A stretch of DNA of 50,180 nt from NCBI GenBank assembly GCA_913777025.1, contig CAJYQM010000292.1, forward strand, positions 1-50,180, read 5' to 3'. The position numbers and the translations under genes were made by a program. Source of the stretch: an uncultured Massilia sp. GTDB lineage: Bacteria > Pseudomonadota > Gammaproteobacteria > Burkholderiales > Burkholderiaceae_D. This document shows, in pieces, positions 13,950 to 28,261 of this stretch. The notes under the pieces were generated by a model, which had not been told where the DNA came from, did not search any database, and was given only the letters and a program-made list of their open reading frames with translations. Numbering within the stretch: position 1 is the stretch's first letter; each line of letters opens with the position of its first letter.

Positions 13950-15908
13950 ATGCTGCAGTCGTCCCACCGTAGTTCGCGCCACGCCATTTCCCTCGCCGTG
14001 CTGGTCCTGCTGTCCGCTTGCGGCGGCGCCAGCGACGGCGTCACCGACATCACCCCGGTCAGCGTCGCCCCGAGCGCGCCGGCCGACCAGGGCGCGCCCG
14101 ACACCGCGCCGGTGCCCGCCGTCGCCGCTTTCGTCGACACCGCCGCCAGCAACCAGCGCGGCGATGCCCGCTACGCGACTCTCCCCACCAACGCCGGCGT
14201 GCGCGTGCTGGGCGGCTTCCTGGATGTCTGGAAGCCGCTGACCGAAATCGTCGATGCCGACGCCAGCGCGCCCGCGGTGGATGGCTTCCCGGCTGTCGTG
14301 AAATCGACCTGGACCGGCGTGCCGAACGACGGCACGAATGGCGGCACCATCGTCAACGCCACCGTGCACAACGCGAACATCGACTACGTGGTCAAGGCAA
14401 CGACCGGCCGCACCGCGGAACAAGGCGTGATGGCCTACCTGGACGACCGCCGCAACAAGGGTTACAGCGTGACGGAAGGCATGGGCCCGCTGACCACGGC
14501 ATGGCGCAGCGCCAGCCGCGCGACCACGACCATCAACGGCGTGCCGGCCGACGCGACCACGGTCAAATACGATGACGGCGGCAACAACAACGGCGTCGGC
14601 GGCGATGCCAATGCCGACTTCGGCAAGGTGGTCGACTTCGTGAATTCGATGGGCGGCAACGGCTCGACCGAACCGGCCAAGCGCTTCTACAAATATGCGC
14701 GTCCTTACCGCTGGAGCAGCGCGGTCGCCGTGCTGCCGCAGCTGGTGCCGGCCAAGAGCCCGACCCCGGTCAGCGACGGCGGCTTCCCCAGCGGCCATGC
14801 GGCCGAAGCGACGCGCAATGCGGTCGGCATGGCCTACGTGCTGCCGGAACGCTACCAGGAACTGGTCGGCCGCGGCCTGGAACTGGGCGAGAGCCGCATC
14901 CTGGCCGGCATGCACTCGCCGATGGACGTGATCGGCGGCCGCGTGCAGGCGCAGGCCGTCGCCGCCGCCAACATCATCGCCGCGAATGCCACCACGCGCG
15001 CCGCCGCCGTGAGCCAGGCCCACACGACGCTGATGAAGCTGACCAATACCACGGCCGCCACCTTCCCGGCCTATGCCGTCTCCGGCACGGCCCCCAACGA
15101 CCACTTTGCCGACTACGCGACCAGCCGCGCCAACTATATCCGCCGCCTGACCTACGGCCTGCCGCAGATCGGCGCCACCAACGCGCCGGCCGTGGTGCCG
15201 AAGGGCGCCGAAGTGCTGCTCGAAACCCGCCTGCCTTACCTGAGCGATGCCCAGCGCCGCGTGGTCCTGAAGACCACGGCGATCGCTTCCGGCTATCCGG
15301 TGCTGGACGATCCGGAAGGCTGGGGCCGCCTGAACCTGTTCGCCGCCGCCGATGGCTACGGCAGCTTCACCGGCAACGTCGTCGTGAACATGGATGCGGG
15401 CAAGGGCGGCTTCAACGCGGTCGACCGCTGGCGCAACGACATCGCCGGCAGCGGCAAGCTGGTCAAGCAGGGCAGCGGCACCCTCAAACTGGGCGGCAAG
15501 AACAGCTGGACCGGCGGCACCCAGGTCGAAGGCGGCGTGCTCGAGGCGCTGTCGGGCACGGCCTTCGGCAACGGCGACGTCTACGTGGCCGCCGGCGCCA
15601 CCCTGGCCAGCAGCGCACCGACTGCGCTGACCCTGGGCGGCAACTACGCGCAACTGGACAAGAGCACGCTGGACATCACGCTGGGCGCCGACAATGCCGG
15701 CACGCTGAACGTGAAAGGCACGGCGACCCTGGCCGGCGGCACCCTGCGCCTGAAATTCGCCGGCGGCTTCAAGCCGAGCGTCGGCGCCAGCTACCAGGTC
15801 ATGACTGCGGGCGCGCGCAAGGGCGTGTTCACCGGCGTAACCGTGGATGGCTACAAGGCCTCGCTGCAGTACAGCGGCACCGGCGTTTCGGTCCATATCG
15901 ACGGCTGA
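13950..15908 (+). CDS. Lipoprotein PAP2-family acid phosphatase with C-terminal autotransporter-type repeat
   Basis: A 652-residue exported protein. A lipoprotein signal ends in LLSACGG (Cys about 25), so it is probably anchored to the outer membrane or displayed on the surface. The phosphatase domain (about 75-400) carries the PAP2 signature: K248-x-x-RP, FPSGHAAEATR with His283, and ESRILAGMHSPMD with His322 and Asp326, the residues of the vanadium-haloperoxidase-like site. From about residue 500 a GSGTLKLGGKNSWTGGTQVE motif marks a PATR beta-helix repeat normally found in autotransporter passengers, but no C-terminal beta-barrel follows. It probably releases phosphate from organic phosphates. 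It is followed by a modest terminator. Confidence 0.87.
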   Translation: MLQSSHRSSRHAISLAVLVLLSACGGASDGVTDITPVSVAPSAPADQGAPDTAPVPAVAAFVDTAASNQRGDARYATLPTNAGVRVLGGFLDVWKPLTEIVDADASAPAVDGFPAVVKSTWTGVPNDGTNGGTIVNATVHNANIDYVVKATTGRTAEQGVMAYLDDRRNKGYSVTEGMGPLTTAWRSASRATTTINGVPADATTVKYDDGGNNNGVGGDANADFGKVVDFVNSMGGNGSTEPAKRFYKYARPYRWSSAVAVLPQLVPAKSPTPVSDGGFPSGHAAEATRNAVGMAYVLPERYQELVGRGLELGESRILAGMHSPMDVIGGRVQAQAVAAANIIAANATTRAAAVSQAHTTLMKLTNTTAATFPAYAVSGTAPNDHFADYATSRANYIRRLTYGLPQIGATNAPAVVPKGAEVLLETRLPYLSDAQRRVVLKTTAIASGYPVLDDPEGWGRLNLFAAADGYGSFTGNVVVNMDAGKGGFNAVDRWRNDIAGSGKLVKQGSGTLKLGGKNSWTGGTQVEGGVLEALSGTAFGNGDVYVAAGATLASSAPTALTLGGNYAQLDKSTLDITLGADNAGTLNVKGTATLAGGTLRLKFAGGFKPSVGASYQVMTAGARKGVFTGVTVDGYKASLQYSGTGVSVHIDG

Positions 15909-15933
15909 TCCGCACGCATGGCCGGAAACAGGG

Positions 15934-15959
15934 GCGGCATCGAGGATGCCGGCTTTTTT
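15934..15959 (+). terminator. Putative terminator after the PAP2 phosphatase
   Basis: CGGCAT-CGAGG-ATGCCG (15935-15951) followed by GCTTTTTTG. The stem is only 6 bp but GC-rich, with a good T-run 26-50 bases after the stop codon. Confidence 0.6.
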
Positions 15960-16058
15960 GCTTTTACTCGGCCGTATTTATCCTTTATTCTTGTGCCAGA
16001 TGGATTGTTAGCGCAAACATCCGTCCGGAGACTTCGACACCCATAAAGGATAACAACC

Positions 16059-17636
16059 ATGTCATCACGCCGTACCCTGCTGGCCAGCGCCGTGGCGCTG
16101 GCCTGTGCATCGTTCTTCCATGCGCCCGGCCAGGCCGCCGAAGGCACCCGCACCATCGCCATCGACGCGCAGGCGCCGACCACGCCGCGCGACCGCTTCT
16201 ATGACCTGTCGATCGGTTCCGACTTCCCCGGCACCCTGCTGCGCGAGGACAGCCTGGCCCAGCTGAAGATGGCCAGGGACGAGCTGGGCTTCCGCACCAT
16301 CCGCTTCCACGGCATCTTCCACGACGTGCTGGGCACCTACAAGCTCGTGGACGGCAAGCCGGTGTACGACTGGACCAAAATCGACGCCTTGTACGACAAG
16401 CTGCTGGCAATGGGCATCAAGCCCTTCGTGGAACTGGGTTTTACGCCGGAAGCGATGAAGACCTCGGACAACAGCATCTTCTACTGGAAGGGCAACACCT
16501 CGCACCCGAACCCCGCGCGCTGGCAAGGGTTGGTCGACGCTTTCGTGCGGCACCTGCAGCAGCGCTACGGCAAGGAGGAAGTCCGCAGCTGGTTCTTCGA
16601 AGTCTGGAACGAGCCGAACCTGGAGGGTTTCTGGGAAAAGGCCGACCAGCCGGCCTACTTTGCGCTGTACGACCTGACGGCGCGCACCATCAAGGCGATC
16701 GACCCGCAGCTGCGCGTGGGCGGCCCGTCGACCGCGGGCGCGGCCTGGGTGCCCGAGTTCCTGGCGCATACCCGGAAGAGCGGGGCGGCGGTCGACTTCA
16801 TCACCACCCACACCTATGGCGTGGACGGCGGCTTCCTCGACGAGAACGGCAAGAGCGACACCAAGCTGTCGCCGTCACCGGACGCCATCGTCGGCGACGT
16901 GCGCAAGGTGCGCCGCGAAATCGAAGCGTCCTACCTGCCCAAGCTGCCGCTGTACTTCACCGAGTGGAGCACCAGCTACACGCCGCGCGACCCGGTGCAC
17001 GATTCCTACCTCAGCGCTCCCTATATCCTGTCCAAGCTGAAGGCGAGCGAAGGCCTGTTGCAGGGCATGAGCTACTGGACCTATTCCGACCTGTTCGAGG
17101 AACCGGGTCCGCCGACCGCGCCGTTCGAGGGCGGCTTCGGCCTGATGAACCCGCAGGGCATCCGCAAGCCGGCCTGGTTCGCCTACAAATACCTGCACCA
17201 GCTGGGCGAGCGCGAATTGAAGACGCCGGATGCGCAAAGCTGGGTCACGCGCGACGACAATGGCGGCGTGCAGGTGCTGGCCTGGGATTTCCAGAGCCCG
17301 GACCAGGGCGGCAAGAGCAACCGGCCCTTTTATACGACGGTGCAGCCGGCGCGCGACGGCACGCCCTTGAGCCTCGAACTGAAAGGCATGAAGCCGGGCA
17401 GCTACGCGATGCAGGTCCACCGCACGGGATTCAGGGCCAACGACCCGCAGACCGCCTACCTGGAGATGGGCAAGCCGAAGACGCTCACCCCGGCCCAGCT
17501 GGCGCAGCTGCAGGCGCTGACCGTCGACAAACCGGAGACGCGCCAGCTGAAGGTGGGCGCCGACGGCACGGCCCGCGTGCAACTGCCGATGCGCGTGAAC
17601 GACGTGGTGCTGGTGAAGATCGGCGCGGCGCGCTAG
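16059..17636 (+). CDS. Exported GH39-family glycoside hydrolase (beta-xylosidase-like)
   Basis: A 525-residue protein with a signal peptide (cleavage near GQAAEG, residue ~27). A (beta/alpha)8 barrel of clan GH-A follows: the acid/base Glu185 in FEVWNEPNL and the nucleophile Glu302 in LYFTEWSTSY, with RFHGIFHD and THTYGVDG strands that fit GH39. A C-terminal beta domain from ~400 completes the usual GH39 length. GH39 enzymes remove xylose or iduronate from the non-reducing end by retention; xylan side activity is the likeliest role, but the substrate is not fixed by sequence. The gene stands alone and is convergent with the YfcC-family carrier, with only 16 bp between them. Confidence 0.87.
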   Translation: MSSRRTLLASAVALACASFFHAPGQAAEGTRTIAIDAQAPTTPRDRFYDLSIGSDFPGTLLREDSLAQLKMARDELGFRTIRFHGIFHDVLGTYKLVDGKPVYDWTKIDALYDKLLAMGIKPFVELGFTPEAMKTSDNSIFYWKGNTSHPNPARWQGLVDAFVRHLQQRYGKEEVRSWFFEVWNEPNLEGFWEKADQPAYFALYDLTARTIKAIDPQLRVGGPSTAGAAWVPEFLAHTRKSGAAVDFITTHTYGVDGGFLDENGKSDTKLSPSPDAIVGDVRKVRREIEASYLPKLPLYFTEWSTSYTPRDPVHDSYLSAPYILSKLKASEGLLQGMSYWTYSDLFEEPGPPTAPFEGGFGLMNPQGIRKPAWFAYKYLHQLGERELKTPDAQSWVTRDDNGGVQVLAWDFQSPDQGGKSNRPFYTTVQPARDGTPLSLELKGMKPGSYAMQVHRTGFRANDPQTAYLEMGKPKTLTPAQLAQLQALTVDKPETRQLKVGADGTARVQLPMRVNDVVLVKIGAAR

Positions 17637-17652
17637 CGTTCGGACCCCGGCC

Positions 17653-19035
17653 TCAGTTCCACTGCATCAGGCAGGGCGGGATCAGCAGGAGCAGGGCCAG
17701 CACCAGGTAGATCAGCTGCAGCGGGATCATCCACTTGGCCCAGGTCAGCCAGGGCACGCGCGCCAGCGCCAGCACGCCCACCGTGATGCCCGAGGTCGGG
17801 ATCATCGGCGTGGACAGCTCGCCCAGCTGGAAGGCGAGGATCGCGGTCTGGCGCGTCACGCCCACCAGGTCGGCCAGCGGCGCCATGATCGGCATGGTCA
17901 GCGCGGCCTGGCCGCTGCCCGAGTGGATGAAGAAGTTGATCACCGACTGGATCAGGTACATCTTCTGGACGGCGAACACCGGGTGGCTCGATTGCACCAG
18001 CGGCATGAGCGCATGCAGCATGGTGTCGATGATGTGGGCGTCGCGCGCGATGATCATCGTGGCGCGCGCGATCGCGATCACCAGCGCGGTCGGCGCCAGG
18101 TCCTTCACGCCCTGCATGAAGGCGCCGACCCAGTTGTCGGTGCCGATGCGTCCCACCAGCCCGACCACGATCGCCATCGCCAGGAACAGGGCGGCGATCT
18201 CCTCGATGTACCACTCGTACTTCACCACGCCCACCACCATCACGCCCAGCGCCAGCGCGAAGATCGCCAGCACCGCCGCGTGGCGCCCGGTCATCCGGTC
18301 GAAGGCCAGGCTGGGCGGCTGCTCCTGGCGCTTGGCCTGGTCGAGCACGTAGGTCGGGCTGAGCGCCGGGTTGCGTTTCACGCGCGCCGCGTACCACATC
18401 AGGAAGGCGATGGTGACGACGGTGGCAGTGGCCCACACCACCAGCCGGTAGCCCATCCCCGAAAACACCGGCACGCCGGCGATGCCCTGCGCGATGCCGA
18501 CGTTGAAGGGATTCAGGAATGCGGCGCCGAACCCGACTTGCGAGCCGAGGAAGGGAATCGAGACCCCGGTCACGGTGTCGTAGCCGAGCGCCAGCGCCAG
18601 CGGCACGAAAATGAGCACGAAGGGGATCACTTCCTCGTTCATGCCGAAGGTGGCACCGCCCAGCGAGAACAGGGTGACGAACACCGGGATCAGGGTGGCG
18701 CGCACCAGCGGCGAATGTTCGTGCGCGCGCGCGATCGAGCGTATCGCGGTGTCGATCGCCTCGGTCTTCTGCACCACCGCAAAGGCACCGCCGACGATCA
18801 GCACGAAGCCGATGATCAGCGCCGCCTCGACGAAGCCCTTGATCGGCGCCTTCATCAAGGCCACCAGGCCCTGCGGGCTGCTCGCAATGTAGTGAAAGGA
18901 GGCCGGGTCGACCAGCTGCTTGCCGTTGACCAGGTGGGTCTCGTACTTCCCGCCCGGGACGAACCAGGTGGCCAGCGCGATCAGGGCCAGGATGGCGAAC
19001 AGCAGGACGAAGGTGTTGGGCAGGCGCAGGCGCAT
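17653..19035 (-). CDS. YfcC/DcuC-superfamily carrier, candidate beta-Asp-Arg or Arg/Asp importer
   Basis: A 460-residue inner-membrane protein with about 11-12 hydrophobic helices of the C4-dicarboxylate anaerobic carrier superfamily (YfcC branch). Family features are the N-terminal LPNTFVLLFAIL helix, the ATWFVPGGKYE loop, the re-entrant GGATFGMNEEVIPF segment, and the C-terminal FFIHSGSGQAALTMPIMAPLADL with its SGSGQA hairpin. Members are linked to amino-acid or peptide uptake but poorly characterised. Its ATG follows the stop of the upstream CphZ-like gene by one base, so the two are co-transcribed, and the locus also encodes a cyanophycinase. I infer that it imports the cyanophycin dipeptide or its products. 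Confidence 0.82.
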   Translation of the reverse strand: MRLRLPNTFVLLFAILALIALATWFVPGGKYETHLVNGKQLVDPASFHYIASSPQGLVALMKAPIKGFVEAALIIGFVLIVGGAFAVVQKTEAIDTAIRSIARAHEHSPLVRATLIPVFVTLFSLGGATFGMNEEVIPFVLIFVPLALALGYDTVTGVSIPFLGSQVGFGAAFLNPFNVGIAQGIAGVPVFSGMGYRLVVWATATVVTIAFLMWYAARVKRNPALSPTYVLDQAKRQEQPPSLAFDRMTGRHAAVLAIFALALGVMVVGVVKYEWYIEEIAALFLAMAIVVGLVGRIGTDNWVGAFMQGVKDLAPTALVIAIARATMIIARDAHIIDTMLHALMPLVQSSHPVFAVQKMYLIQSVINFFIHSGSGQAALTMPIMAPLADLVGVTRQTAILAFQLGELSTPMIPTSGITVGVLALARVPWLTWAKWMIPLQLIYLVLALLLLIPPCLMQWN

Positions 19036-19036
19036 G

Positions 19037-20164
19037 TCATTGACTCAGCAGGGAACCGGTACGGAAGGGCGTCGCGCCCGCGATCTTGCAGACCTGCATG
19101 CCGCGCAGCAGGTGGCGGTGGGCGGTGGAGGCGAACAGCAGGCCGCCGCCCCGCGCGCGCAGCGTCGTGACGGCGCCGCTCACGGGGTTGACTATGTCGG
19201 CCACCGCCTCGCCCGCTGCCACCGTGTCGCCGAGCGCCTTGAGGAAGACCAGCACCCCCGAGTGCGGCGCGGTCAGCGGCTCGACAGCTTCGAGCGGCGT
19301 CGCCGCGCACGCGGCTTCCGGCGCCGCTGCGGCGCCTGGCGCGTGCGCGATGTCGAGCACGCCCTCGCGCGCCAGGTACTGCAGCAGCGCCCGGGCATCG
19401 CGTTCGGCGTAGTCGTAGCGCACGTCCATCTCGCCGCGCAGTTCGACCGTGATGGCGGCGCAGGCCGGCGGGATCGGGGCCTGCGGACCGAAGTGGGCCG
19501 CCAGGTCCCACCACAGGCGGCTGCAGGCTTCGTCGAAGGGCTCGCCCCCGGAAGCGTCGGACACCAGCAGGGCGCGCGCGCCGAGCAGCGCCGCCAGGGG
19601 CCGGGCCTGCTCGAGCAGCGCCGAGCCCGTGTACATGTGCAGCAGCGCCTCGTTATCGCAGTGCAGGTCGAGCACGATGTCGGCGTCGATCGCCATCGAC
19701 AGCAGGGTCTTCTTGAGGGTGCCGGTGTGGCCGTCCGGCTGCCAGCGCTCGACCGCTGCGCGCGCCTCGGCGCGGATCAGGGCCACGTTGGCCACCGCGT
19801 CGGTGCCCAGGCGATGCGCGAGCGTCGCCTTGAGTTCATCGGCGACATGCGGGAAGCCGCGGTTGAAGTTGACGCCGCTGCCGAGGTCGAAGCGGCCGAA
19901 GGGCGTGCCGTGCACCAGCTGCGACAGGCCGACCGGATTGGCCGCCGGCACCAGGATGATCTCACCGCGCACGCGGCCTTCGGCCTCTAACCGATCCAGT
20001 TCGCGTTTGAGGCAGTGGGCCACCAGCATCGGCGGGACTTCGTCGGCGTGCAGCGCGGCCTGGATGTAGACCTTCCTGCCGCCGGCGGCGCCGTAGTGGA
20101 AGGACGCGAGCCGGAAGGCGGCAAGGCCGGGTTCGTCCGCGATCGGATGGGTTGTCGTATGCAT
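19037..20164 (-). CDS. cphZ: M14/aspartoacylase-like zinc hydrolase, probable cyanophycin dipeptide hydrolase CphZ
   Basis: A 375-residue enzyme of the succinylglutamate desuccinylase/aspartoacylase family. Zinc ligands His39 and Glu42 (AALHADE), His168 (DLHCDNE) and catalytic Glu241 (TVELRGE) are all present, as is the NFNRGFP substrate loop (99-105). The C-terminal ~80 residues form the small beta domain of this family (SGVLVFLKALGDTVAAGEAVADI). CphZ, homologous to Pseudomonas AotO, is an enzyme of this family that hydrolyses beta-Asp-Arg from cyanophycin. Assignment here rests on family plus the exported cyanophycinase 4 kb away; a plain N-acyl-amino acid deacylase is the alternative. It is first in a minus-strand operon with the carrier and divergent from an RpiR regulator. 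Confidence 0.72.
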   Translation of the reverse strand: MHTTTHPIADEPGLAAFRLASFHYGAAGGRKVYIQAALHADEVPPMLVAHCLKRELDRLEAEGRVRGEIILVPAANPVGLSQLVHGTPFGRFDLGSGVNFNRGFPHVADELKATLAHRLGTDAVANVALIRAEARAAVERWQPDGHTGTLKKTLLSMAIDADIVLDLHCDNEALLHMYTGSALLEQARPLAALLGARALLVSDASGGEPFDEACSRLWWDLAAHFGPQAPIPPACAAITVELRGEMDVRYDYAERDARALLQYLAREGVLDIAHAPGAAAAPEAACAATPLEAVEPLTAPHSGVLVFLKALGDTVAAGEAVADIVNPVSGAVTTLRARGGGLLFASTAHRHLLRGMQVCKIAGATPFRTGSLLSQ

Positions 20165-20239
20165 GGGGCGAAGTCTCCAGGCGCCGTGGCGGGGCTGCTG
20201 TGGCCGATTATGTATGAATTTTTACACAACGTAAATCGA

Positions 20240-20255
20240 TGAAAGAATATTTTCA
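20240..20255. promoter_or_regulatory. Candidate RpiR-family operator
   Basis: TGAAA-GAATAT-TTTCA is an inverted repeat with 5-bp arms in the 164-bp region between the divergent cphZ-like and rpiR genes; that region is otherwise AT-rich (GAATTTTTACACAACGTAAA). Palindromes with A/T-rich TGAAA/TTTCA arms are compatible with RpiR-type regulators. It lies 76 bp before the cphZ start and 74 bp before the regulator start, so one site could serve both. Confidence 0.45.
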
Positions 20256-20328
20256 AAATCTTGTTGAGTTCGCGGCGGCAGGCAGTTTAGAGTCAAAAAA
20301 TGTTTAAAGATTTGCATCGAAGGCGAGC

Positions 20329-21291
20329 ATGACCCTTCCCGCTTCTTCCAGCGCCGCACCCGACATCGGTTTTGCCGAATCCCGGCTCGGCCAGGCGCTG
20401 TTGCGCGTGCTGGCGGAGGGATCGGCCTCGAACCGCGCAATTGCCGACCACCTGCTGCGCAACCAGGTGCGCGTGACCGCGCTCGGCATCGGGGAACTGG
20501 CCGAGGCCTGCGAGGTCTCGACCGCCACCATCAGCCGCTTCGCGCGCGACCTCGGTTTCAAGAACTACGCGGCGATGCGCGGCGCGGTGGCCGAGACGCT
20601 GCAGTCGGTGCTGCAGCCGGTCGAAAAGCTGCGCAGCACGATCGCGCGCCGTGCCGGCGCGGCCTCGCCCGCGCTCGAGAGCCTGGGCTATGCCGAGGCG
20701 GCCATCACCGCCACCAGCCGCGCGCTCGCCGGCGCCCAGATCGACCGCATCGGCAACGCGCTCACCAAGGCGCGCGCCGTCTACGTGCTGGGCTTCGGAC
20801 TGTCCTCCTTCCTGGCCGGCGCGCTGGCGATGCACCTGCAACCCTTCTGCCACGTGGTCGACGTGGCCGCGAGCGGCGGCACCGAAGTCGCCGCCAGCCA
20901 CCTGGCCACCATCACGGGCAAGGACGTACTGGTCGTGATTTCGCTGCCGCGCTACACGCTGGACGCGGTCTCGCTGACCCGCTTCGCGCGCGACAGCGGC
21001 GCGACCATCGTCGCCATCACCGATTCGCCCGCGTCCCCGCTCGCCGAACTGGGGCACCACGTGCTGTACGCGCACAGCACGCATTCGGTGCTGCCCAGCA
21101 GCTCGAGCGCCGCGCTGGCCGTGATCGAGGCGCTGGCCGTGTCCCTGATGACGTCCAACAAGGCCAATGTCGCCAAGGCGGCCCGCCATACCGAGGCCAT
21201 CGCGGCCTATCTCTACGGCGAACACCAGGTTCGCGGCAGCAGCACGCACAAGAAAGAAGACGCCCGCAAGCGTACGGTCAGGAAGTCCTGA
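20329..21291 (+). CDS. MurR/RpiR-family transcriptional regulator (HTH + SIS)
   Basis: A 320-residue regulator. Residues about 15-90 are an RpiR-type helix-turn-helix (ASNRAIADHLLRNQ, then the recognition segment GELAEACEVSTATISRFARDLG and FKNYAAMR). Residues about 130-270 form a SIS domain (VYVLGFGLSSFLAGALAMHL; later DVLVVISLPRYT and IVAITDSPASPLA), which usually binds phosphosugars. In this context a sugar ligand is not obvious, so the effector may be an amino acid or dipeptide. It is divergent from the carrier/CphZ operon and 28 bp upstream of the receptor and cyanophycinase genes, and probably controls both arms. The C-terminal tail is basic and unstructured. Confidence 0.88.
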   Translation: MTLPASSSAAPDIGFAESRLGQALLRVLAEGSASNRAIADHLLRNQVRVTALGIGELAEACEVSTATISRFARDLGFKNYAAMRGAVAETLQSVLQPVEKLRSTIARRAGAASPALESLGYAEAAITATSRALAGAQIDRIGNALTKARAVYVLGFGLSSFLAGALAMHLQPFCHVVDVAASGGTEVAASHLATITGKDVLVVISLPRYTLDAVSLTRFARDSGATIVAITDSPASPLAELGHHVLYAHSTHSVLPSSSSAALAVIEALAVSLMTSNKANVAKAARHTEAIAAYLYGEHQVRGSSTHKKEDARKRTVRKS

Positions 21292-21319
21292 GTCATCCAT
21301 CACCAAGAGGGAGCATTGC

Positions 21320-24070
21320 ATGAGCAAGCAGAGTTCGAGTACGTTGCGGCCGACCGTCCTGGCGTCGGCCGTGGTCGCCTCGCTGGGGTTCATGGGGCAG
21401 CAGGCGCAGGCGCAGGAGCAGGATACGCAGCCGGTGCCGCACCGCGTCGAGATCACCGGTTCCTCGATCAAGCGCATCGACAGCGAGACGGCGCTGCCGG
21501 TGCAGCTGATCACGCGCGAGGACATCGACAAGATGGGCGCCACCACGGCCGCGGAACTGGTCAAGAACATCAGCGCCAACACGGCGCCGCTGACCGACGG
21601 CCCCAGCATCTCGGACGGCACCTCCGGCCAGCGCGGCTTCAATGGCGCCAACATGCGCGGCATCGGGGTCTCGTCCACGCTGATCCTGCTGAACGGCCGG
21701 CGCCTGGCCAACTTCGCTTCGCCCGGCGACAACGCCGGCGTCGACCTGAACAACATCCCGGCCGGCGCGATCCAGCGCGTGGAGGTGCTGAAGGACGGCG
21801 CCTCCGCGATCTACGGCACCGATGCCATCGGCGGCGTGATCAACTTCATCACGCGCAAGGACTACACCGGCATCGACCTGGCCGCATCGGCCGCCGGCAC
21901 CCAGCAGGGCGGAGCCGGCAAGCGCACCGCCAGCATCAGCGCCGGCGCCGGCAACCTGGCCGAGGACCGCTTCAACGTGTTCGGCGTGCTCGACGTGCAG
22001 CAGCTCGACCGCCTGCGCTCGGGCCAGCGCAGCTTCATCCGCGAACGGCCGCTGGCGACCACGCTGCCGGCCCAGATGTCCAGCAACACCTTCCCGGCCA
22101 ACATCGACATCTCGGGCGCGCAGCGCAATGCCCTGATCGGCGCCGGCCTGCTGCCGGCCGGCAGCACGGCCAGCCGGGTCAACCCGAGCGCGCCGGGCTG
22201 CAACCCGCCCGCCACCGTTTACGCCGAAAAGGGACCGGGCGGCGCGGCGGGCTGCAGCTACGACTACATGGAAGACACCGAGATCTACCCGGACTCGCGC
22301 AAGATCGGCTTCATCGGGCGCGCGACCTTCCAGCTGGACCCGGCCAACCAGCTGTTCGCGGAACTGGTGCAGACCGAGGCGAAGACGACCTACGTGCTGT
22401 CGCCGAATCCGGTCCGCATCCGCAACCTGCCGGTCGGCATCCTGCCGGCCGCCTACCGCAATGCCCTGAGCGCCCCGGGCCTGCCCGCGACCTTCAGCGG
22501 CATCCGCTACCGGATGAGCGAAGCGGGCAACCGCAGCAACGAGGTGACCAGCACCGGCCAGCGGCTGGTGCTGGGCGCCAGCGGCACCCTGGCCGGCTGG
22601 GACTACGACCTCGCCGTGTCGCGCGCCGAGAACCGCGCCGACGACAAGTACGTGGATGGCTATGTGCTGTACGACCAGTTCGAGGCCGGCGTACGCAACG
22701 GCACCATCAACCCGTTCGCGCCCTCGTCCCAGGCCGGCCTGGACCTCGTCAAGAGCCTGCGCATCAGCGACGAGGCGCGCAAGGCCAAGGGCGTGTCCAC
22801 CTCGATCGACGGCAAGATGTCGCGTTCCCTGATGACGCTGGCCGGCGGCGACCTGGCGCTGGCGGTCGGCGGCGAACTGCGCCACGAGCGCCAGCAATTC
22901 AATCCCTCGGCCCTGCTGCGCTCGAACAACATCGCCGGTGACCGCGACAGCACCTTGGACCCGGGCCAGCTGGCCGACGTGGAAACGCTGGACGACAAGC
23001 GCAAGGTGGCGTCCGTGTTCACCGAAGTGGTCGCGCCGATCACGAAGGAACTGGAGATGCAGTTCGCGCTGCGCTACGACCACTACAGCGAAGTGGGCAA
23101 CACCACCAATCCGAAGATCGGCGTGCGCTGGCAGCCGGCCAGGTCGCTGCTGCTGCGCGGCTCGGCCGGCACCGGCTTTCGCGCCCCTTCGCTGTCCGAC
23201 CTGAAGCGCCCGACCATCTTCGGCACCGCGGCCGGTTTCCTGACCGACCCGCAGTGCGTGCGCCAGGAAGGCAGCATCGACACCTGCACCGACCAGTGGA
23301 ACGTCGAGCGCCGCTCGAATCCTGATTTGAAACCGGAGAAATCGCGCCAGTTCACGCTCGGTGCCGTGGTCGAGCTGGACAAGCGCACCAATGTCTCGAT
23401 CGACTACTGGAACATCGAGAAACGCGACGTCATCAGCACGCTGGGCGAACAGGTCATCGTCGAGAATCCCGACGCCTACAACGGCAAGTACATCCAGCGC
23501 GACGAGGATGGCTTCATCTCCAACATCCTCCTGATGAAGGAAAACCAGGGCCGCCTGAAGACCTCCGGCATCGACCTGGTCGCTGACTGGCACAGCGAGC
23601 GTGGAAGCTGGGGACGCCTGGGCGTCAGCCTGTCCGGCACCTACATCATGCGCTACGACCGCCAGTTCGGCCCGCAGGAGCCCTACCGCAGCAACCTGGG
23701 CGTGTTCCTGAACGACCAGGTGATCCAGCGCTGGCGCCACCGCATCAGCCTGGACTGGGATTCGGGGCCGTACAGCCTGAGCCTGGCGAACCAGTACTCG
23801 TCCGGCTACACGGACCAGAACACGACCTACGACCCGTACACCGACCAGCTGCTCGCGCCGAACCACGTGAAAGCATATTCGCTGTGGGACCTGACCGGCA
23901 GCTGGGCGATCGGCAAGCGGCTCAAGCTGCGCGCGGGCGTGCTGAACCTGCTGAACACCGACCCGCCGTTCTCGAACCAGGCCTATTTCTTCCTGGCCGG
24001 CTACGACCCGAGCTACACGGATCCGCGCGGCCGCAGCGGCTTCGTGAGCGTGAACTATTCGTTCAAGTGA
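21320..24070 (+). CDS. TonB-dependent outer-membrane receptor
   Basis: A 916-residue receptor. The signal peptide ends near QQAQAQEQ (residue ~30). The plug (about 40-190) shows VEITGSSIKRIDSETALPVQ, the QRGFNGANMRGIGVSSTLIL motif and RVEVLKDGASAIYGTDAIGGVINFIT. The barrel contains FRAPSLSDLKRP and NPDLKPEKSRQFTLGA and ends GFVSVNYSFK. The start at 21320 is chosen for AGAGGGA 7 bases upstream and for the signal peptide; a frame open back to 21167 overlaps the regulator. The class resembles oligomer-import receptors of carbohydrate/peptide loci rather than siderophore receptors, because the gene is followed after 10 bp by cyanophycinase. Likely ligand: cyanophycin fragments (inference). Confidence 0.88.
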   Translation: MSKQSSSTLRPTVLASAVVASLGFMGQQAQAQEQDTQPVPHRVEITGSSIKRIDSETALPVQLITREDIDKMGATTAAELVKNISANTAPLTDGPSISDGTSGQRGFNGANMRGIGVSSTLILLNGRRLANFASPGDNAGVDLNNIPAGAIQRVEVLKDGASAIYGTDAIGGVINFITRKDYTGIDLAASAAGTQQGGAGKRTASISAGAGNLAEDRFNVFGVLDVQQLDRLRSGQRSFIRERPLATTLPAQMSSNTFPANIDISGAQRNALIGAGLLPAGSTASRVNPSAPGCNPPATVYAEKGPGGAAGCSYDYMEDTEIYPDSRKIGFIGRATFQLDPANQLFAELVQTEAKTTYVLSPNPVRIRNLPVGILPAAYRNALSAPGLPATFSGIRYRMSEAGNRSNEVTSTGQRLVLGASGTLAGWDYDLAVSRAENRADDKYVDGYVLYDQFEAGVRNGTINPFAPSSQAGLDLVKSLRISDEARKAKGVSTSIDGKMSRSLMTLAGGDLALAVGGELRHERQQFNPSALLRSNNIAGDRDSTLDPGQLADVETLDDKRKVASVFTEVVAPITKELEMQFALRYDHYSEVGNTTNPKIGVRWQPARSLLLRGSAGTGFRAPSLSDLKRPTIFGTAAGFLTDPQCVRQEGSIDTCTDQWNVERRSNPDLKPEKSRQFTLGAVVELDKRTNVSIDYWNIEKRDVISTLGEQVIVENPDAYNGKYIQRDEDGFISNILLMKENQGRLKTSGIDLVADWHSERGSWGRLGVSLSGTYIMRYDRQFGPQEPYRSNLGVFLNDQVIQRWRHRISLDWDSGPYSLSLANQYSSGYTDQNTTYDPYTDQLLAPNHVKAYSLWDLTGSWAIGKRLKLRAGVLNLLNTDPPFSNQAYFFLAGYDPSYTDPRGRSGFVSVNYSFK

Positions 24071-24080
24071 CGGGCGGCCC

Positions 24081-25295
24081 ATGTTGAAACGACTGTATTG
24101 CGTGCTGGCGCTGGCCTGCACGGTGGCGGGCGGCAGCGCTGCCGCTGCGGGCCCCGCAGCGTCACCGAAAGGCTCGCTGGTCATCATCGGCGGCGGCCTG
24201 CGTGCCGACAATGCCGCGGTCTGGCAGAAGGTCGTCGACCTGGCCGGCGGCAAGGGCGCGCGCATCGCGGTGCTGCCGACGGCGGCCGGCAACCCGGAGC
24301 GCGAAGGGGCGCTTACCGTGGCGAACCTGAACCGCTACGGCGCGCGGGCCTTCGTGGTGCCGGTCGCGCCGCGCCTGCCCGGCCGCGATGCGCGCCAGGC
24401 CGCGGACGATCCGGTCCTGGCGCGCGCGGTGCTTGGCGCCGGCGGCGTGTTCTTCACCGGCGGCGACCAGGGCCGCATCACGGCTGTGCTGCGCCACGCG
24501 GACGGCAGCAACACGGCCGTGCTGGACGCGCTGTGGGCGCTGTACCGGCGCGGCGGCGTGATCGCCGGCACCAGCGCCGGCGCCGCCATCATGAGCGCCA
24601 CCATGTTCTACGACCCGCCTCTGGAAGTGCTGCCGGTGCTGAAGAACGGCGTGGTGGACGGCAAGGACATCGCGCCCGGGCTGGGTTTCATCGGCGCCGA
24701 CGTCTTCGTCGACCAGCACCTGCTGGTGCGCGGCCGCTTCGCCCGCATGCTGCCGGCGATGCTGGCCAAGCGCTACACGCTGGGCCTGGGCATCGACGAG
24801 AACACCGCCGCCGTGATCGGCCCCACGCGTGACGTGACCATGATCGGCTACCAGGGCGCCATCGTGCTCGAGCTGGGACAGGCGAGCACGGACAAGGCGC
24901 AGGCCGGCTTCAACCTGTCCAATGCGCGCATCAGTTATCTCGACAGCGGCGACCGCTTCAACCTGGCCACGCGCACCTTTTATCCGGGGCCGGGCAAGGA
25001 GCCGGTGCATGAAGAGGTGCCCGAGCACCGTCCGCCGATCTTCTACACGGACATTTTGGGGAATACCTCGGTGGTCAACCTGCTGGAAAAGCTGGTCGAC
25101 AGCGACCAGCAGCGCGCCGGGGGGGTGGCGTTCGAGGGGCCGGGCAGCGCGATGGCGGAACGCGGGTTCGAGTTCACGTTTACGCGGATGCCGGACAGCG
25201 GGGAGTTTGCGACGAACCGGGAAGATGCGTTTTCGATCTACCGGATCAGGATGGATGTGCGGCCGGTGCGGGTGCGCCAGCCGTTTTATGAGTAG
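24081..25295 (+). CDS. cphE: Exported cyanophycinase (peptidase family S51)
   Basis: A 404-residue serine exopeptidase that cuts cyanophycin (poly-Asp with Arg side chains) into beta-Asp-Arg dipeptides. After an N-terminal signal peptide (MLKRLYCVLALACTVAGG...AAAAG) comes the S51 core: VIIGGGL, the TGGDQGR segment (126-132), the nucleophile Ser165 in IAGTSAGAA, and the VDQHLLVRGR motif that completes the cyanophycinase-type active site. The C-terminal ~130 residues (after the FNLSNARISYL region) extend beyond the ~270-residue intracellular CphB, as in extracellular CphE-type enzymes. With the signal peptide this indicates use of external cyanophycin rather than turnover of a store; no cyanophycin synthetase is in the window. 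Confidence 0.85.
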   Translation: MLKRLYCVLALACTVAGGSAAAAGPAASPKGSLVIIGGGLRADNAAVWQKVVDLAGGKGARIAVLPTAAGNPEREGALTVANLNRYGARAFVVPVAPRLPGRDARQAADDPVLARAVLGAGGVFFTGGDQGRITAVLRHADGSNTAVLDALWALYRRGGVIAGTSAGAAIMSATMFYDPPLEVLPVLKNGVVDGKDIAPGLGFIGADVFVDQHLLVRGRFARMLPAMLAKRYTLGLGIDENTAAVIGPTRDVTMIGYQGAIVLELGQASTDKAQAGFNLSNARISYLDSGDRFNLATRTFYPGPGKEPVHEEVPEHRPPIFYTDILGNTSVVNLLEKLVDSDQQRAGGVAFEGPGSAMAERGFEFTFTRMPDSGEFATNREDAFSIYRIRMDVRPVRVRQPFYE

Positions 25296-25406
25296 TAGGG
25301 TGGACGGCTGTGCCGTCCACGCGGTGATCGAAGCAGGCTCCGATGGCGTGCACGGTATCGGAGCCGATAACAATCACCGCGTGGACAGCGAAGCTGTCCA
25401 CCCTAC
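25296..25406. repeat. REP/BIME-like double-hairpin repeat, copy C (best preserved)
   Basis: It spans the junction of the convergent cyanophycinase and uvrA genes. Left hairpin GTGGACGGC-TGT-GCCGTCCAC at 25300-25320; central 9-bp stem GGCTCCGAT (25336-25344) / ATCGGAGCC (25357-25365); right hairpin GTGGACAGC-GAA-GCTGTCCAC at 25381-25401. The outer ends (TAGGGTGGAC...GTCCACCCTA) and inner CGCGGTGAT/ATCACCGCG pair too, so the whole 110 bp can fold as one cruciform-like structure. Confidence 0.85.
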
Positions 25407-25411
25407 GTACC

Positions 25412-28261
<2,850 letters not shown>

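What the first reader, a model, noticed from the sequence alone, without database searches (positions are those of the whole stretch)
17653..25295. Self-contained cyanophycin-scavenging locus with TonB receptor and regulator
The five genes read as one pathway: an exported cyanophycinase, a TonB-dependent receptor 10 bp before it, an aspartoacylase-like enzyme of the CphZ type, a YfcC-family carrier one base after it, and a divergent RpiR regulator. Cyanophycinase and CphZ are known enzymes; their joining to a TonB receptor, a YfcC carrier and an RpiR switch as a SusCD-like nutrient system is, as far as I know, not described. No synthetase is present in the window, which points to use of polymer from other cells.
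Basis: partly seen in the sequence, partly recalled or inferred. Interest (0 to 1): 0.8.

Follow-up and report, generated by a model that had tools for sequence, protein, structure and literature searches.

The report
TonB-linked cyanophycin utilisation locus

Summary
A YfcC-like carrier and CphZ (minus strand) face RpiR, a TonB-dependent receptor (TBDR) and an exported cyanophycinase, CphE (plus strand). Of the window and 120 fetched loci, 50 hold all five genes, all in one order and strand pattern (43 distinct intergenic regions), although TBDR identity falls to 38%. CphE and CphZ co-occur in 113 of 294 family genomes (CphE alone 8, CphZ alone 14). Outside the family, 9 of 12 CphE loci hold a similar TBDR and 8 of 12 CphZ; in two families an arginine-type ABC importer stands where YfcC would be, the best hint that YfcC carries the dipeptide. 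A palindrome between the divergent promoters is a likely RpiR operator. 'Not described' is half right: cyanophycin-scavenging clusters and a TBDR near a cyanophycinase are in print. New variant of a known kind; substrates of TBDR and YfcC are inferred.

The parts
17653..19035 (-). YfcC-like carrier (PF03606, DcuC/ArcD-type), proposed inner-membrane importer of beta-Asp-Arg
   Evidence: PF03606 340.5 bits; NCBIfam YfcC 378 bits, below cut-off 500; 71-92% identical in 49 other five-gene loci, the narrowest range of the five
19037..20164 (-). CphZ-like cyanophycin dipeptide hydrolase, no signal peptide seen, taken as cytoplasmic
   Evidence: Best PDB 8ein 247 bits, next other protein 85 bits; H39, E42, H168, E241 invariant in 16 CphZ rows; E241 aligns with the Glu that is Ala in 8eip
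20211..20226 (.). operator-like palindrome 1 (2 mismatches), overlaps the CphZ promoter
20240..20255 (.). operator-like palindrome 2, TGWAAANNNNTTTWCA with 1 mismatch, overlaps the RpiR-side promoter
   Evidence: motif in 43 of 43 intergenic regions at up to 2 mismatches, shuffled mean 3.65
20293..20308 (.). weak third palindrome (2 mismatches)
20207..20248 (.). overlapping divergent sigma-70-like promoters (+ 20221-20248, - 20235-20207), the only two that the scan found in 17400-25500
   Evidence: 2 found, shuffled mean 0.7
20329..21291 (+). RpiR-family regulator (HTH_6 + SIS)
   Evidence: 57-90% identical in 49 other five-gene loci
21317..24070 (+). TonB-dependent receptor (plug + barrel, no STN domain found), proposed outer-membrane importer of cyanophycin pieces
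   Evidence: PF00593 146 bits, PF07715 80 bits; found beside CphE in four families
24081..25295 (+). exported cyanophycinase of the CphE type, Sec signal peptide, C-terminal extension beyond the CphB length
   Evidence: TIGR02069 138.7 bits, cut-off 126.6; Q130, S165, D211-Q212-H213, R217, R219, R222, E240 invariant in 32 rows; fold matches 7uqv/7uqw/3en0, target TM 0.84-0.88

Best explanation
This is a cyanophycin-utilisation locus of Oxalobacteraceae. CphE is exported by Sec (beyond that perhaps by type II secretion) and cuts extracellular cyanophycin to beta-Asp-Arg and short chains. The TBDR brings these pieces through the outer membrane, the YfcC-like carrier brings beta-Asp-Arg through the inner membrane, and cytoplasmic CphZ splits it into aspartate and arginine. 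RpiR sits between the two divergent operons and represses both until an unknown signal releases it. Shown here: gene identities, family-level fold of CphE and conserved active-site residues of CphE and CphZ, signal peptides by simple rules, conserved order, gene co-occurrence, an arginine-type ABC importer in place of YfcC in two other families, conserved palindrome. Inferred: cargo of the TBDR and of YfcC, RpiR effector and sign, location of CphE outside the cell. The polymer's source is open: the host also encodes the synthetase, so released polymer of lysed kin is as likely a food as that of cyanobacteria.
For: Identities. Order: 50 of 50 complete loci, made up of the window, 18 of 40 chosen family loci and 31 of the 80 best named loci. 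Co-occurrence of CphE and CphZ: 113 both, 8 CphE only, 14 CphZ only, of 294. Outside the family: a similar TBDR in 9 of 12 CphE loci, CphZ in 8 of 12, RpiR in 4, YfcC in 1. In L184 Pfam confirms binding protein, two permeases, CphZ and ATPase in a row; in L187 binding protein, one of two permeases and ATPase were scanned and confirmed; L188 was read from translations only. One locus of family f21 (L180) has RpiR-TBDR-CphE-CphZ-YfcC in a single direction. Where the locus has shrunk, TBDR and CphE stay together (L044, L048). Operator. Fold. The genome has AstA twice, so arginine can probably be used, and GspD. Literature: CphE of Pseudomonas alcaligenes is secreted, with a proposed Ser-His-Glu triad (passages of PMC3235067).
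Against: 31 of the 80 best named loci hold CphE with none of the other four within the fetched flanks, so CphE also works apart from this set. The dipeptide (about 289 Da, recalled) could pass porins, and in one gammaproteobacterium an OprD porin, with no similar TBDR found, stands beside the cyanophycinase (L200). The TBDR tree does not show one clade: 55 of 59 group apart from the own-genome paralogs, 4 join them, on long branches. The TBDR model failed (pLDDT 61.9). The palindrome was found by looking at these same sequences, and shows no genome-wide excess (115 against 112 control). It is also present, at exactly 2 mismatches, in 7 loci with no RpiR found nearby. RpiR/SIS proteins usually sense sugar phosphates (recalled), an odd sensor for a dipeptide. 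No expression data.
Confidence: 0.75

Rival explanations
1. Same enzymes, but the TBDR serves another cargo (for example a metal chelate or an unrelated peptide), while beta-Asp-Arg enters by ordinary porins; the locus is a dipeptide-use operon with a hitch-hiking receptor.
For: OprD porin beside the cyanophycinase in L200; TBDR identity falls to 38%; no TBDR found in some CphZ-CphE loci such as L101, L110, L056; deep tree ambiguous.
Against: TBDR beside CphE in four families despite rearrangement; kept with CphE where RpiR, CphZ and YfcC are gone (L044, L048); 69-71% identical to the window TBDR in family f38, where CphE is only 46%.
Confidence: 0.2
2. The locus mainly recycles cyanophycin made by the species itself, set free by lysis of sister cells, and not polymer of cyanobacteria.
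For: 118 of 121 CphE-positive genomes match CphA, against 130 of 173 others; the own genome holds CphA and two CphE but no CphB-type hit of PF03575.
Against: The export signal and uptake genes do not distinguish sources; the genome is 84% complete, so a missing CphB is weak; a relative, G018, has a CphB-type gene beside CphA; the counts share ancestry.
Confidence: 0.35
3. The S51 enzyme acts on another isoaspartyl or acidic peptide, and the set is a general peptide-scavenging operon.
For: Other S51-like structures match more weakly (6nqc, dipeptidase E); identity to solved cyanophycinases only 28-31%; an M64 peptidase stands beside one CphE gene (L101).
Against: TIGR02069 over its cut-off; cyanophycinase pocket residues invariant; [quoted passage not shown]
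Confidence: 0.1

Closest known systems
Cyanophycin-scavenging clusters (strain L21-Spi-D4, Flammeovirga pacifica), as told in PMC10206079
   Same: cyanophycinase with a dipeptide-cleaving enzyme and a transporter
   Different: told there with iadA/iaaA and for genomes without cphA1; here CphZ, a TBDR, a PF03606 carrier and RpiR, in a genome that has CphA
Citromicrobium sp. JLT1363 TBDT near cyanophycinase (PMC3400609)
   Same: TBDR near a cyanophycinase gene, cyanophycin proposed as substrate
   Different: one locus, no CphZ, carrier or regulator named in the passages seen
aot operon with AotO = CphZ in Pseudomonas (PNAS 2023, recalled; paper not held)
   Same: CphZ with an inner-membrane importer for beta-Asp-Arg; f38 and f22 loci here show an ABC plus CphZ layout
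   Different: window uses a PF03606 carrier and adds CphE, TBDR and RpiR
Extracellular cyanophycinase CphE of Pseudomonas alcaligenes/anguilliseptica (PMC3235067)
   Same: about 400-420 aa, Sec signal, Ser-His-Glu order with the same His-Glu spacing of 27
   Different: host family; gene neighbourhood not given in the passages seen
SusCD polysaccharide utilisation loci
   Same: would work alike: outer enzyme, active outer-membrane import, inner carrier, cytoplasmic enzyme, local regulator
   Different: no SusD found, TBDR not of the SusC family

Membership tests
Cyanophycinase (TIGR02069), extracellular CphE type | score over the curated cut-off | tested here: met
   138.7 against 126.6 bits
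Cyanophycinase (TIGR02069), extracellular CphE type | catalytic Ser, His, Glu and Gln/Arg pocket residues | tested here: met
   S165, H213, E240, Q130, R217, R219, R222 invariant in 32 rows, aligned with 3en0; triad from PMC3235067, Gln and Arg roles recalled
Cyanophycinase (TIGR02069), extracellular CphE type | Sec signal peptide and length near 400 aa | tested here: met
   404 aa; crude signal rule met in 69 of 81 rows; strict lipobox pattern in 0 of 81, though L130 and L149 show LQGC, which a looser pattern would accept
Cyanophycinase (TIGR02069), extracellular CphE type | releases beta-Asp-Arg from cyanophycin | not testable with these tools
   needs enzyme assay
CphZ (cyanophycin dipeptide hydrolase) | closer to 8ein than to other AstE/AspA proteins | tested here: met
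   247 against 85 bits; that 8ein is a CphZ is recalled
CphZ (cyanophycin dipeptide hydrolase) | metal-site HxxE...H and catalytic Glu | tested here: met
   H39, E42, H168, E241 invariant in 16 rows; roles recalled
CphZ (cyanophycin dipeptide hydrolase) | cleaves beta-Asp-Arg specifically | not testable with these tools
   needs enzyme assay
YfcC equivalog (NF008611) | score over the curated cut-off | tested here: not met
   378 against 500 bits; member of PF03606 only
SusCD-type system | SusC/RagA-family receptor | tested here: not met
   28.2 against 368.25 bits
SusCD-type system | SusD lipoprotein beside the receptor | tested here: not met
   none among the seven proteins of 13950-25295 scanned
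Cyanophycin utilisation locus of a non-producer | no cyanophycin synthetase in the genome | tested here: not met
   CphA 984 bits, cut-off 850

The most novel reading that the evidence does not exclude
The TBDR is a dedicated outer-membrane importer for a poly-amino acid or its isopeptide pieces. Together with exported CphE it gives cyanophycin-making betaproteobacteria, in which PMC10206079 found a recognisable cyanophycinase only seldom, a route to reclaim the polymer from outside, as a nitrogen store shared among kin.
Probability: 0.3. Interest if true: 0.75.

Novelty: new variant of a known kind. Interest (0 to 1): 0.55.

Why it matters
Sharon and Schmeing found a recognisable cyanophycinase in only 3% of cphA1-holding betaproteobacterial genomes and called this unanticipated (PMC10206079 discussion). 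In the family sample here 118 of 248 CphA genomes match CphE at E up to 1e-20, 116 of them at E up to 1e-70, and the enzyme is, judged by its signal peptide, exported. That turns a gap into a testable question: do these bacteria use cyanophycin as an extracellular or shared store? The locus also offers a candidate TonB-dependent importer for a poly-amino acid and a candidate dipeptide role for a PF03606 carrier, with natural swaps (YfcC or ABC importer; perhaps TBDR or OprD) that genetics can test.

Tried and rejected
SusCD membership: rejected on SusC score and absence of SusD. Scavenger without synthesis: rejected. Wider RpiR regulon: no excess of the palindrome in the genome, 115 against 112 for the reversed control; left as a local switch. 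TBDR structure: confidence too low (pLDDT 61.9, first 176 residues under 50), so no fold search was made with it. TBDR monophyly: quick tree of 67 rows inconclusive for the 4 most distant cluster members. Plasmid collection: 6 records with distant cyanophycinases only, 27-37% identical, none followed up. A literature search on cyanophycin with Oxalobacteraceae names gave nothing useful in its listing.

Limits of counts: the 80 named loci are the best 80 of 548 relatives, themselves from a capped list of 600 stretches, not a random sample. The 40 family loci (from 37 genomes) were picked by me from the hits, mostly high-ranking in the first batch and for spread over genera in the second. The 50 five-gene loci include doubles of one genome under G and L names (43 distinct intergenic regions; 7 dropped as identical); L199, seen later with the same layout, is not counted. 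The 121 CphE-positive genomes (E up to 1e-20) include G009 (2.4e-26) and G253 (5.8e-48), which may hold a CphB-type gene only; without them 116 of 119 match CphA. In one search, 2 of 20 loci without RpiR were skipped for length, and the 18 scored include three pairs from one genome. That searches drew the same 294 genomes is read from their handles. Genome counts share ancestry, so the Fisher values overstate certainty.
Full report
What is there. On the minus strand: a PF03606 carrier (17653-19035) and, one base upstream of it, a CphZ-like hydrolase (19037-20164). On the plus strand: RpiR (20329-21291), a TBDR whose start is most likely ATG 21317, and a cyanophycinase (24081-25295) 10 bp after the TBDR. 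Pfam and NCBIfam agree: cyanophycinase TIGR02069 138.7 bits over a cut-off of 126.6; SIS plus HTH_6; TBDR plug and barrel; AstE/AspA catalytic domain; DcuC. The YfcC equivalog model is hit below its cut-off (378 against 500), so the carrier is YfcC-like only.

Enzymes. The cyanophycinase aligns over its first 300 residues with solved cyanophycinases, and its AlphaFold2 model (pLDDT 84.7) matches 7uqv, 7uqw and 3en0 at target TM 0.84-0.88. The serine, histidine and glutamate and the Gln and Arg residues of the pocket are invariant in 32 rows. Spacing from His to Glu is 27, as in secreted CphE of Pseudomonas alcaligenes (His224, Glu251; passages of PMC3235067). Like that enzyme it is about 400 residues long with a Sec signal; a crude signal rule holds in 69 of 81 rows, and a strict lipobox pattern in none of 81, though two rows (L130, L149) show LQGC. 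The hydrolase is closest to 8ein (247 bits; next other protein 85 bits), and H39, E42, H168 and E241 are invariant in 16 rows. The identification of 8ein/8eip with CphZ is recalled; the PDB copy names them succinylglutamate desuccinylase.

Conservation. CphE was found in 121 of 294 family genomes at E up to 1e-20, 119 of them at E up to 1e-70. I fetched 40 loci from 37 of these genomes with about 9 kb flanks: 18 hold all five genes. A scan of named genomes kept the best 80 of 548 relatives, from Massilia, Janthinobacterium, Rugamonas, Duganella, Pseudoduganella and Telluria among others. Of the 80, 31 hold all five and 31 none of the other four; 43 hold CphZ, and of these 37 a TBDR and 40 YfcC. 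With the window this makes 50 complete loci, all with the same order and strands; one (L055) has only a TBDR remnant. Identities to the window run 71-92% (YfcC), 57-90% (RpiR), 50-80% (CphZ), 49-86% (CphE) and 38-91% (TBDR). CphZ at E up to 1e-60 was found in 127 of 294 genomes; 113 hold both, 8 CphE only, 14 CphZ only.

Outside the family. CphE at E up to 1e-70 is rare: 14 of 349 genomes of the order sample (10 outside the family) and 3 of 369 of the class sample, one of the three being the own genome. In the 12 loci outside the family a TBDR like the window's stands by in 9, CphZ in 8, RpiR in 4, YfcC in 1. In family f38 (L184) CphZ lies between two permeases and the ATPase of an operon that starts with a binding protein, all confirmed by Pfam. 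In f22 (L187) the layout is the same; binding protein, one permease and ATPase were scanned and confirmed, and L188 was read from translations only. L187 adds an AraC-type regulator and a class-III aminotransferase. So receptor, cyanophycinase and CphZ stay while the inner-membrane importer changes. By the recalled role of the aot operon in beta-Asp-Arg uptake, this points to the same cargo for YfcC. In a gammaproteobacterium (L200) a cyanophycinase with an SLH match stands by an OprD porin, two binding proteins and an RpiR gene 40% identical to the window's.

The synthetase. The genome (542 contigs, 84% complete) has one CphA over the cut-off (984 against 850 bits) and a second partial one at a contig end. 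In the family sample 248 of 294 genomes match CphA at E up to 1e-100 (237 over the cut-off). Of the 121 CphE-positive genomes only G171, G044 (68% complete) and G238 (48% complete) do not, so 118 of 121 against 130 of 173. In the own genome PF03575 found only two genes, both CphE-type. A relative, G018, has in addition a CphB-type gene with CphA and an asparaginase-type (IaaA-like) gene beside it. Among the 8 loci of other genomes in the phylum sample, 6 have the cyanophycinase beside CphA. Two settings thus exist: CphB-type with CphA, and exported CphE with uptake genes.

Regulation. The 164-bp gap between CphZ and RpiR holds the only two sigma-70-like promoters that the scan found in 17400-25500, divergent and overlapping. 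A palindrome TGWAAANNNNTTTWCA is there at 20240-20255 and, weaker, at 20211-20226 and 20293-20308; 2 of 100 shuffled windows had as many sites. It occurs in 43 of 43 distinct intergenic regions at up to 2 mismatches (35 at up to 1, 16 exact) against a shuffled mean of 3.65, largest 7. Of 18 scored loci without RpiR, the 11 in which CphZ faces CphE directly have none at up to 2 mismatches; the 7 that keep the TBDR have it at exactly 2. The motif was drawn from these sequences, and no genome-wide excess was seen. A local repressor overlapping both promoters is the simplest reading.

Mechanism. Exported CphE cuts polymer; TBDR and carrier bring in the pieces; CphZ gives Asp and Arg; AstA (two genes) can take arginine on. 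GspD is present, so secretion beyond the periplasm is possible. The cargo of TBDR and YfcC, the RpiR signal and the place of CphE are inferred.

Novelty. Seen in print: cyanophycin-scavenging clusters with iadA/iaaA and transporters (PMC10206079: outline, passages and discussion); a TBDR near a cyanophycinase with cyanophycin as proposed substrate (PMC3400609, passages); secreted CphE (PMC3235067, passages). Searches for cyanophycin or cyanophycinase with TonB, YfcC, AotO or CphZ gave no paper that describes this combination in the listings and passages I saw. The PNAS paper on CphZ is not held, so part of this may be there. I file it as a new variant of a known kind.

Noticed in passing
L041:5316-6437 (G000 contig C382): Second exported cyanophycinase of the same genome, about 59% identical, beside argH and near a gene whose translation looks like an M64 peptidase (by eye); argH also lies near many CphE loci of other genera, which may be the older site.
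   Followed up: partly
L200:7170-14929: Gammaproteobacterial cyanophycinase gene with an SLH match (32 bits for the whole protein, no single stretch significant), next to OprD, two amino-acid binding proteins and an RpiR regulator: perhaps a porin version of the same idea.
   Followed up: partly
L072, L076, L130, L135, L147, L149, L151, L158-L160: Tandem duplicates of the cyanophycinase gene at the end of the locus, in Duganella, Rugamonas and Pseudoduganella among others; seven of these loci have no RpiR found between the divergent genes.
   Followed up: no
L044 and L048: Same-genus loci without RpiR, CphZ and YfcC that keep TBDR plus CphE; their genomes have a CphZ elsewhere.
   Followed up: partly
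L055:10688-10867: TBDR reduced to a remnant while the other four genes are kept.
   Followed up: no
L182, L184, L185: In family f38 the TBDR is 69-71% identical to the window's but CphE only 46%, which hints at separate transfer of the receptor.
   Followed up: no
L192:10389-11501 (G000 contig C497): A second CphZ gene (about 70% identical) in the own genome, with no other gene of the set found in the 20 kb read.
   Followed up: partly
window 13950-15908: PAP2 phosphatase with an autotransporter-type repeat (PF12951) in one protein.
   Followed up: no
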